Below, piece by piece: positions 56,863 through 58,508 of a DNA stretch of 64,000 nt. The notes beneath the pieces were generated by a model. That model ran no database searches. It saw only the letters and a program-made list of their open reading frames with translations, and was not told where the DNA came from. A program made the translations under genes and the position numbers. Origin of the DNA: Thermotoga sp. Mc24 (GTDB taxonomy: Bacteria; Thermotogota; Thermotogae; Thermotogales; Thermotogaceae); contig NZ_JSFH01000012.1 in the NCBI RefSeq assembly GCF_000784835.1, forward strand, positions 186,001-250,000, read 5' to 3'. Position 1 is the first letter of the stretch. The number at the start of each line of letters is the position of its first letter.

Positions 56863-56979
56863 TTTCTATCCCTCCAGTGTTCGATGAGATCGTCTCAGGA
56901 GCTCTCCGAGGTGAAGTCGTTTAAAGCAACGAAATCGTCCCAGTATTCCGGATTTTTCACTTTCTGAGGCAAGTAGATC
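56859..56979 (-). pseudogene. Distal remnant of a C11-type peptidase gene
   Basis: Right outside the element's right end the minus strand reads KIYLPQKVKNPEYWDDFVA, then LNDFTSESS, a TGA (56895-56897), and then [11 protein letters not shown] before TGA 56859. C11 peptidases often end with an F..t.tW..fL-like stretch, so the internal TGA is probably a changed TGG. The final TGA overlaps the next gene as TTGA, the coupling style of this genome. Family identity is inferred from the N-terminal remnant at 58329-58508. Confidence 0.55.
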
Positions 56980-57063
56980 TTGACCTCCTCCCAATCCCCT
57001 GAAGGGGATGGGACTTTTGGTGGCTCTCAGGCCACCTTCCATGGAGCCAAAGACGCTCCATGG
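56980..57063 (-). ncRNA. Candidate omega-RNA scaffold
   Basis: Three hairpins follow each other on the minus strand over the end of tnpB: CCATGGAGC/GCTCCATGG (57039-57063, in the coding region), GGTGGC/GCCACC (57019-57036, over the stop codon) and the right-end palindrome (56989-57013). TnpB guide RNAs are known to come from this place, with the guide being the DNA just past the right end; here that starts GATCTACTTG at 56979. The 5' end of the RNA is not visible. Inference from position and structure. Confidence 0.45.
56989..57013. repeat. Right-end palindrome of the tnpB element
   Basis: TCCCA-A-TCCCC / GGGGATGGGA, loop TGAA, one bulged base; stem of ten pairs. Followed on the minus strand by GGAGG and TCAA. 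Confidence 0.7.
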
Positions 57064-58235
57064 CCACAGAGGTGCGGATGGAACCTCACACCTCTGACGG
57101 GGGCCAAACCCGCTACTACCTGGCCTGTGCCAGGATACCTTTTCCAGATGTTGATTGCTCCAACTCCGTCCCTGTGATACTCAAAACCACAGGTTTTGCA
57201 GTGGTATCTTCTTCCGTTCGGCTTGTTCTTTGCACCACAGACAGGACACGTCTTGCTCGTGTTCGCTTCTGAGATGAGCTTTACTTTGATTCCGAACTGC
57301 TCTGCTTTGTACCTTATCATCTCGATGAGTTTTCTGAACTGCCACTGGTGGATCTTCTGGTTCGCATTGTCGCTATAGTCCGCTCTTTCTCTGATCCCTG
57401 TGACGTCTCCTATCACGATGGTTCCGATTTGTTTTCTGAGGCACAGTCCGATGAAACTGCTTGTGATCTTGTGCATGATGTCGTTGATCTGGTTTCTGAG
57501 CCGTCTCAGGACTCTTTTCTTTGCACGAACAAGCTTGTTGTACCTTCTTGATCCCTTCTTGCACTCTGCTATGGCAGACTGAAGGCTTGCGAGGCGTTTG
57601 TTTCGGTAGCGAAGGATGCTGCTAAGAACCCCTCCGTGGTAGCTGATGACTTCTTTTCCATCAAAGCACGTGATGGGACGGAGCACTCCAGGGTCGACTG
57701 CCATAACACCAGAATTAGCACTCTTTTCTTCAATCTCCACCTCTATCGCAAGGTGGAGATAGTATCCATCTTCAAAGACAAGTCTTGCCTGTTTGATGCG
57801 AAGGGGAGGTTTGAGAGGTGTTTGTACAACAAATGGTTCTCGTTCTTTGCCCAAAGACAGTCTCAGGGTGCCGTCTGATAGAAGTTTTACAGCGCTTTCT
57901 TTCCATATGAACGGTAGATAGCGTTTTTTCTTGTAGGGAGGTTTTGCATCTTGATTCTTTTTGGCTGCTTTGAAGTACCCTTTGAGGGCTTGAAAGTAGA
58001 GCTGAACAAATGCCTGCTTTGAGTGGACGTGGATTTTGATGTTTTCTGCCCAGCGGAGGATGTATTTGTCTGCGGTGGGCCAGGACAGCCAGAAGCCTTT
58101 CTTTCGGTGTATCTTTCGCACAAGAGACATCGTTTTGTTGTAGATTCTTGCTGCGGTGCGGTTGAGTTCTTCGCATGTTTGATTCAAATGTCCCGGTACA
58201 GCGAGTTTGTAGGTTCGTATCACACGTCTGGGCAT
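57027..58235 (-). CDS. tnpB: TnpB RNA-guided nuclease, apparently full length
   Basis: A 402-residue TnpB. The N-terminal half is the helix-turn-helix/OrfB region with the VHSKQAFVQLYFQALKGYF helix. RuvC-I is VMAVDPGV (D181). RuvC-II reads TIVIGDVTGI, with Gly 276 where most TnpB proteins have the catalytic Glu (IVxED); a Glu is found at 323 in ISEANTSKTCPVCG instead. The zinc finger has C330, C333, C346, C349, and RuvC-III is HRDGVGAINI (D356). No frameshift or stop was seen. ATG 58235 follows GGGAG. TnpB cuts DNA with an omega-RNA at a TAM, helping the element persist. Confidence 0.92.
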   Translation of the reverse strand: MPRRVIRTYKLAVPGHLNQTCEELNRTAARIYNKTMSLVRKIHRKKGFWLSWPTADKYILRWAENIKIHVHSKQAFVQLYFQALKGYFKAAKKNQDAKPPYKKKRYLPFIWKESAVKLLSDGTLRLSLGKEREPFVVQTPLKPPLRIKQARLVFEDGYYLHLAIEVEIEEKSANSGVMAVDPGVLRPITCFDGKEVISYHGGVLSSILRYRNKRLASLQSAIAECKKGSRRYNKLVRAKKRVLRRLRNQINDIMHKITSSFIGLCLRKQIGTIVIGDVTGIRERADYSDNANQKIHQWQFRKLIEMIRYKAEQFGIKVKLISEANTSKTCPVCGAKNKPNGRRYHCKTCGFEYHRDGVGAINIWKRYPGTGQVVAGLAPVRGVRFHPHLCGHGASLAPWKVA

Positions 58236-58287: not shown

Positions 58288-58309
58288 CTATCCCTCTGAA
58301 AGAGGATAG
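58288..58309. repeat. Left-end palindrome of the tnpB element
   Basis: CTATCC-C-TCT / AGAGGATAG, a 9-bp stem with one bulged base and a short loop; outer AACCAC (58279-58284) and GTGGTT (58315-58320) can also pair. It mirrors the right-end palindrome. Confidence 0.6.
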
Positions 58310-58328
58310 CTTGCGTGGTTGGGGTTCT

Positions 58329-58508
58329 GTCAACCAGAGCGAAGACATCTATCCAAGATGGATTTCCCATCATCTCCTTCAGATCCTGAGAGATGAACTG
58401 CTCCAGATCGTTGTCCCCTGCTATCCAGACGAGGAACGAAAGCGTGTGGTTGTAAACAGGAATGCACCCGAAAATCAAGAGAAAAAGACTACCTGTTAAG
58501 ATAATCAA
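58329..58508 (-). pseudogene. N-terminal remnant of a lipoprotein C11-type peptidase
   Basis: TTG 58508 opens a lipoprotein signal (LTGSLFLLIFGC), then FLVWIAGDNDLEQFISQDLK and a VFALVDR strand, the start of clostripain-type (C11) peptidases (AxDNxLE...DLxEM...VxxxxDR). The frame goes on to a stop at 58272 but the last ~18 residues come from the mobile element. The catalytic His and Cys part is missing, so no active peptidase is made. It overlaps the end of the radical SAM gene by 20 bases. Confidence 0.65.

What the first reader, a model, noticed from the sequence alone, without database searches (positions are those of the whole stretch)
56980..57063. Three tandem hairpins over the tnpB 3' end look like an omega-RNA
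Seen: two perfect stems (9 and 6 bp) and the right-end palindrome follow one another over 75 bases of the tnpB 3' end, with 2 and 5 bases between them. Known: TnpB guide RNAs come from this place and take the guide from the DNA past the right end. Inference: a working guide RNA whose guide is now the broken peptidase gene (GATCTACTTG...).
Basis: partly seen in the sequence, partly recalled or inferred. Interest (0 to 1): 0.6.

Follow-up and report, generated by a model that had tools for sequence, protein, structure and literature searches.

The report
TnpB guide RNA in a Thermotoga transposon
The hairpins are the 3' half of a conserved guide RNA that lets a transposon-carried DNA-cutting enzyme recognise the spot its transposon sits in; this is a known kind of system, but relatives in nearby bacteria include tiny transposons that kept only this RNA and lost the enzyme gene, which makes the RNA's role unusually easy to test.

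Summary
The three hairpins are real, at the stated coordinates. They are the 3' half of a larger RNA scaffold, window 57138-56980 on the minus strand, with six helices and a likely pseudoknot between a loop (UUGGC) and the last five bases before the guide (GUCAA). The element ends exactly at 56980; the putative guide starts at 56979 (GATCTACTTGCC...), inside a C11 peptidase gene that also lost about 755 bp. A covariance model finds the scaffold at the 3' end of TnpB genes only 35-46% identical, in Poribacteria and cyanobacteria. The TnpB is intact and under purifying selection; it lacks the canonical RuvC-II glutamate but has the alternative one. Verdict: an IS200/IS605 TnpB guide RNA, a new member of a known kind; RNA production and cutting are not shown. 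Most interesting by-product: 232-288 bp elements in related genomes that lost tnpB but kept left end, scaffold and right end, with deletion edges within about 14 nt of the scaffold's 5' edge.

The parts
56980..57138 (-). guide-RNA scaffold (omega-RNA / reRNA), six helices, overlapping the last ~36 codons of tnpB and running to the element's right end
   Evidence: Covariation; fold z -5.6; 5' edge set by conservation and by the deletion edges of tnpB-less elements. 5' end of the real RNA not measured.
57119..57134 (-). helix A, CCTGGC/GCCAGG
   Evidence: 2 of 5 pairs with changes on both sides
57097..57113 (-). helix B, GCGGG/CCCGT; its loop TTGGC (57107-57103) can pair with the terminal GTCAA
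   Evidence: 2 of 5 pairs with changes on both sides; loop-tail pairing
57067..57096 (-). helix C, CAGAGGTG/CACCTCTG plus inner pairs
   Evidence: 3 of 11 pairs with changes on both sides
   Evidence: Perfect stem; 4 of 9 pairs with changes on both sides
   Evidence: Perfect stem; 4 of 6 pairs with changes on both sides, 99% of cells paired
56990..57012 (-). helix F, right-end palindrome (TnpA-type subterminal hairpin with one bulged T)
   Evidence: 9 of 9 pairs with changes on both sides in the wide, model-fitted alignment
56980..56984 (-). terminal GTCAA: right-end cleavage motif and proposed pseudoknot arm
   Evidence: Conserved in all full copies, flanks diverge after it; pairing with the helix-B loop
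56960..56979 (-). putative guide, GATCTACTTGCCTCAGAAAG (16-20 nt expected), lying in the remnant of a C11 peptidase gene
   Evidence: First bases past the right end; guide length by analogy with ISDra2 (PMC8612924)
57027..58235 (-). tnpB, 402 aa, RuvC with alternative catalytic Glu (D181, E323, D356)
   Evidence: NF040570 guided_TnpB E 6e-62; invariant residues; fold match to ISDra2 TnpB; pN/pS 0.235
58288..58309 (-). left-end hairpin CTATCCTCTTTCAGAGGGATAG; element starts at 58328
   Evidence: Shared with other copies; boundary
58329..58332 (-). TGAC, target / transposon-adjacent motif next to the left end
   Evidence: TGAC at 25 of 26 left-end junctions in the family (read)
58329..58508 (-). 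5' fragment of the interrupted C11 peptidase gene
   Evidence: PF03415 E 9e-6; intact 351-aa relative in L168
56859..56979 (-). 3' fragment of the peptidase gene, with an in-frame TGA (56897-56895)

Best explanation
The minus strand 57138-56980 encodes the scaffold of an IS200/IS605-type TnpB guide RNA (omega-RNA, reRNA). It overlaps the last ~36 codons of tnpB, spans the stop codon and runs to the exact right end, so the transcript's 3' tail is whatever DNA lies next to the transposon, here GATCTACTTGCC... in the broken peptidase gene. Inferred mechanism: the tnpB transcript runs past the right end; TnpB trims and binds the folded scaffold (six helices, the helix-B loop paired to the terminal GUCAA beside the guide). 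When a TnpA supplied in trans (for example by the tnpA+tnpB copy on contig C2) excises the element, the closed site reads TGAC-GATCTACTTG..., which matches the guide beside the TGAC motif. TnpB cuts it, and repair from a sister chromosome that still has the element restores it. Shown here: anatomy, boundaries, covariation, adjacent motif, intact and selected TnpB. Inferred: transcription, processing, binding, cutting.
For: Covariation in a structure-free alignment: 15 of 50 pairs changed on both sides, 68 doubly changed cells against 21 +/- 4 shuffled, 0 of 500 shuffles reach it; slid structures pair 33-50% of cells against 93.8%. RNAalifold recovers five of six helices unaided. Model hits at the tnpB 3' end in relatives of 35-46% identity, 39 of 45 pairs doubly changed. 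Exact right end with variable flanks. TGAC at 25 of 26 left junctions. TnpB domain, fold and purifying selection. tnpB-less elements keep the whole scaffold.
Against: No RNA data for this strain or, in what could be read, for T. maritima. The canonical RuvC-II Glu is absent (Gly276), and this copy has a Leu182Pro change next to catalytic Asp181. No sigma-70-type promoter match in the element. The pseudoknot pairs almost never vary in close relatives, and the shuffle test on distant ones is weak.
Confidence: 0.86

Rival explanations
1. The hairpins act only as DNA: the right-end palindrome is the TnpA recognition hairpin, and the other stems are incidental or belong to the transposition substrate.
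For: Helix F is a typical TnpA subterminal hairpin with a bulged T; the left end has a matching one.
Against: Helices A-E lie 18-150 nt from the right end and covary, with G-U states tolerated as in RNA. They are conserved in the wide family. The left end shows no such array.
Confidence: 0.05
2. The scaffold is real but this copy is dead: Leu182Pro beside Asp181, or lack of expression, has disabled it.
For: Pro182 occurs only here and in L010 among nine close copies; the site has already suffered a deletion.
Against: ORF, both ends, motif and every helix are intact. DPG is the normal motif in Fanzors, several of which are active (PMC10711439; PMC10432273). The two Pro182 copies are at different sites, and the other one carries tnpA.
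Confidence: 0.2
3. A nuclease-dead TnpB using the guide RNA to repress genes (TldR-like) instead of cutting.
For: The canonical RuvC-II Glu is missing (Gly276).
Against: A complete alternative set, Asp181, Glu323 and Asp356, is invariant in 29 relatives. Copies are mobile, sit at many sites and differ in guide, with no fixed genomic partner. One enzyme of a rearranged-RuvC-II clade is reported to cut (PMC10278001).
Confidence: 0.04

Closest known systems
ISDra2 TnpB reRNA (Deinococcus radiodurans; PMC8612924, PMC10097598)
   Same: RNA of similar size from the tnpB 3' end and right end; guide from flanking DNA; subterminal hairpin close to the guide; pseudoknot between the RNA tail and a loop near the 5' stem; motif at the left end equals the insertion target; fold of TnpB
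   Different: Motif TGAC instead of TTGAT; six covarying helices; rearranged RuvC-II Glu; no RNA or activity data here
RuvC-II-rearranged TnpBs (RII-r clades; PMC10278001) / Ealt TnpBs (PMC10711439)
   Same: Glu six residues before the zinc finger replaces the canonical RuvC-II Glu
   Different: I could not place this family in a named RII-r subclade; the window copy has DPG instead of the family's DLG/DVG
IS608 (Helicobacter pylori) ends
   Same: Small Y1 transposase, subterminal hairpins; the right-end motif TCAA as in IS608 is from memory
   Different: Target TGAC in most of this family (IS608: TTAC); TTAC in the T. neapolitana-type subgroup
PATE-like IS605 element in Halanaerobium (PMC7290912) and Fanzor ghost loci (PMC10432273), for the tnpB-less relatives
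   Same: Element ends kept, nuclease gene gone, 3' RNA-coding or adjacent region kept (the Halanaerobium element keeps 58 nt of tnpB plus 160 nt of right end)
   Different: Here the kept part matches a defined covarying scaffold, in several copies with different guides, with deletion edges at the scaffold's 5' edge

Membership tests
IS200/IS605 TnpB guide RNA (reRNA / omega-RNA) | Lies over the tnpB 3' end, same strand, and ends at the transposon right end, with flanking DNA as guide | tested here: met
   Coordinates; flanks diverge right after GTCAA in the relatives
IS200/IS605 TnpB guide RNA (reRNA / omega-RNA) | Conserved RNA structure supported by compensatory change | tested here: met
   (structure-free alignment)
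IS200/IS605 TnpB guide RNA (reRNA / omega-RNA) | Subterminal hairpin within about 10 nt of the guide (PMC10278001) | tested here: met
   Helix F ends at 56990, guide starts at 56979: 10 nt between
IS200/IS605 TnpB guide RNA (reRNA / omega-RNA) | Pseudoknot between the tail before the guide and a 5' loop (PMC10097598) | tested here: inconclusive
   All counted cells paired in 21 close sequences but almost no variation; weak support in distant relatives
IS200/IS605 TnpB guide RNA (reRNA / omega-RNA) | Linked TnpB with a complete RuvC catalytic set, canonical or rearranged | tested here: met
   Asp181, Glu323, Asp356 and the zinc-finger Cys residues invariant in 29 sequences; guided_TnpB model. 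Spatial closeness of the three residues was not measured.
IS200/IS605 TnpB guide RNA (reRNA / omega-RNA) | Target motif at the left end shared by independent insertions | tested here: met
   TGAC at 25 of 26 left junctions, one GGAC (read)
IS200/IS605 TnpB guide RNA (reRNA / omega-RNA) | RNA is made, bound by TnpB and directs cutting | not testable with these tools
   Needs RNA sequencing and biochemistry
Typical TnpB (canonical RuvC-II Glu) | Glu about 50 residues before the zinc finger | tested here: not met
   Gly276 at that position, invariant in the family
Fanzor / pro-Fanzor lineage | DPG motif plus alternative Glu (PMC10711439) | tested here: met
   DPG at 181-183 and E323-x6-CxxC; but DPG is limited to this copy and L010 among DLG/DVG relatives
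Fanzor / pro-Fanzor lineage | Association with IS607-type (serine) transposase | tested here: not met
   The partner TnpA of the C2 copy is Y1 / IS200 type, NF033573 E 1e-46
Rfam family | Match to a described RNA family | tested here: not met
   No Rfam 15 match at E up to 1

The most novel reading that the evidence does not exclude
The 232-288 bp tnpB-less relatives in other Thermotogae genomes are guide-RNA-only transposons. They keep just the two ends and the scaffold because the RNA is used in trans by a TnpB encoded elsewhere in the genome, so guide RNAs spread as stand-alone mobile cassettes that borrow one protein to move and another to be kept.
Probability: 0.5. Interest if true: 0.6.

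Novelty: new member of a known kind. Interest (0 to 1): 0.42.

Why it matters
It gives a covariation-supported guide-RNA structure, absent from Rfam, for a rearranged-RuvC TnpB family in hyperthermophiles, with motif and guide boundary fixed to the base, so a heat-stable RNA-guided nuclease can be rebuilt and tested. The tnpB-less elements are a natural experiment on whether TnpB guide RNAs work in trans and are selected for their own sake.

Tried and rejected
Rfam search: nothing. Membership in the Fanzor lineage, suggested by DPG plus the alternative Glu: rejected, because DPG is confined to two copies and the partner transposase is Y1. Terminator reading: no minus-strand terminator-like site near the hairpins. 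A second target of the guide in the genome: none beyond the element's own junction and chance-level 3-mismatch hits. Viral contigs: one distant relative only. T. maritima transcriptome paper: a search of the main text for transposase or IS605 found nothing, and its ncRNA table is not readable here. Low-scoring model hits in G000:C10 and G007 look like decayed or other elements. One motif table counted overlapping regex hits, so its tallies were not used; the TAM count was read from the junctions themselves. A reading of the deletions next to both own copies as exact TGAC-to-TGAC events did not hold up and is left as an observation.

Full report
Observation. On the minus strand the tnpB 3' end carries a perfect 9-bp stem (57063-57055 with 57047-57039), a perfect 6-bp stem (57036-57031 with 57024-57019) and the right-end palindrome (57012-56990). 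The 175-nt stretch 57138-56964 folds far better than shuffles, z = -5.6. Three further helices lie upstream: A 57134-57119, B 57113-57097 and C 57096-57067.

Boundaries. The genome has a second copy on contig C2 with tnpA (135 aa, Y1 type, E 1e-46) next to tnpB. Nineteen places in the family match the TnpB, more in the phylum. The copies examined end in GTCAA and the flanks differ from the next base on (GTCGA in one decayed copy). The left end starts at AGAA behind TGAC in 25 of 26 junctions, read; a genome of the size of T. neapolitana has a subgroup with TTAC. The window element is therefore 58328-56980 and its guide would begin GATCTACTTGCC at 56979. No other TGAC-plus-guide site exists in the genome; matches with three mismatches are at about the level of the reversed control.

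Covariation. A MAFFT alignment of 21 right-end regions, made without structure, was tested against the structure read from the window and its relatives: 93.8% of cells form standard pairs against 33-50% when partners are slid; 15 pairs carry changes on both sides; 68 doubly changed cells against 21 +/- 4 in column shuffles, none of 500 shuffles reaching it. RNAalifold finds five of the six helices by itself, all but D. Examples: helix A CCUGG/CCAGG to CUUGG/CCAAG and CGUGG/CCACG; helix E GGUGGC/GCCACC to GGCAGC/GCUGCC. A covariance model finds the scaffold at the 3' end of TnpB genes of 35-46% identity in Poribacteria and cyanobacteria. With 60 distinct sequences, 39 of 45 pairs show double changes; that alignment was fitted to the model and so leans towards it. 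Rfam 15 has no such family.

Pseudoknot. The loop of helix B reads UUGGC and can pair with the terminal GUCAA beside the guide in all 21 close sequences. Distant relatives show some matched changes (GUGGC/GUCAC), but the statistical support is weak: the number of sequences with four or more pairs is the same as in shuffles, and only the mean length is slightly higher. The ISDra2 RNA has a pseudoknot in the equivalent place (PMC10097598). I treat it as likely, not shown.

Protein. The 402-aa TnpB matches guided_TnpB and the ISDra2 TnpB fold (Z 20.1, 336 residues, large rmsd of 13.5 from domain shifts). The position of the canonical RuvC-II Glu is Gly276; Glu323, six residues before the zinc finger, is invariant in 29 relatives together with Asp181 and Asp356. 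This is a rearranged-RuvC-II arrangement, and one member of such a clade (RII-r5) is reported to cut DNA (PMC10278001). The window copy also has DPG at RuvC-I, which with the alternative Glu is the published Fanzor fingerprint (PMC10711439). It is a Leu/Pro difference in this copy and one other (L010) among DLG relatives, and the partner transposase is Y1, so I read it as convergence. Nine close copies give pN/pS 0.235 for the body of the protein. The C-terminal tail encoded by the scaffold region is predicted disordered, as expected if that DNA is constrained as RNA.

Host site. The interrupted gene is a C11 peptidase, intact (351 aa) in the genome of the size of T. maritima MSB8 (naming by size is mine). 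The two flanks in the window are not adjacent there: about 755 bp lie between them, and the 3' fragment has an in-frame stop. The guide does come from the broken peptidase gene, but from a point about 755 bp beyond the left insertion point.

tnpB-less elements. In G072 (2,165,416 bp, the size of Pseudothermotoga hypogea; identification by size is mine) four elements of 269-272 bp at different sites consist of TGAC, left end, a short leader, the complete scaffold and right end, with different flanks as guides. Two older, decayed ones (235-236 bp) lie in the same genome; others in G010 (288 bp), G006 (232 bp) and G075 (where TGAC is not seen). The tnpB homology starts 0-14 nt upstream of the scaffold's first base in each, with differing leaders. 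All 13 right ends found in G072 by the hairpin pattern carry the scaffold. This suggests that the scaffold is kept because the RNA is used in trans; common descent of some of these elements, or chance, is not excluded. Precedents: a PATE-like element in Halanaerobium (PMC7290912) and Fanzor ghost loci (PMC10432273). From memory, not checked, similar non-autonomous elements may be described for Geobacillus.

Verdict. It is a new member of a known kind. Expression and activity remain untested.

Noticed in passing
L147, L148, L149, L150, L152, L153 (G072); L155 (G010); L154 (G006); L132 (G075): Elements of 232-288 bp (L132 similar) with left end, complete or decayed guide-RNA scaffold and right end but no tnpB; deletion edges 0-14 nt upstream of the scaffold.
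   Followed up: partly
window 56979 and 58329 junctions; L002/L011 (G000:C2:65548-67272): Both own copies sit at deletions relative to sister genomes: about 755 bp of the peptidase gene here, and most of a ~300-aa radical-SAM-like gene at the C2 copy. The left ends follow TGAC; the right flanks follow TAAC and TGAT in relatives.
   Followed up: partly
L018 and L010 (G005) against L012 and L016 (G007): Right-end flanks are exchanged between two copies in two Thermotoga genomes (L018 and L012 share the left flank; L018/L016 and L010/L012 share right flanks): a rearrangement through the element that also swaps the putative guides.
   Followed up: no
window 57690-57692 (codon 182 of tnpB); L010: CCT (Pro) in two copies where all other close copies have CTT (Leu), creating the DPG + alternative-Glu 'Fanzor fingerprint' outside the Fanzor lineage: pattern searches for that fingerprint will pick up such copies.
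   Followed up: yes
G000:C4:158748-158772 (L003): The same 25-bp hairpin as this right end stands in front of an unrelated TnpB gene with a canonical RuvC-II Glu (L003 1585-2829), also in G005, G006 and G007: two element families may share end recognition.
   Followed up: no
L020 (G006) and L023 (G005): A decayed copy (last 83 codons plus scaffold) looks identical, printed flanks included, in two species whose peptidase-region DNA differs by about 20%: possible recent transfer.
   Followed up: no
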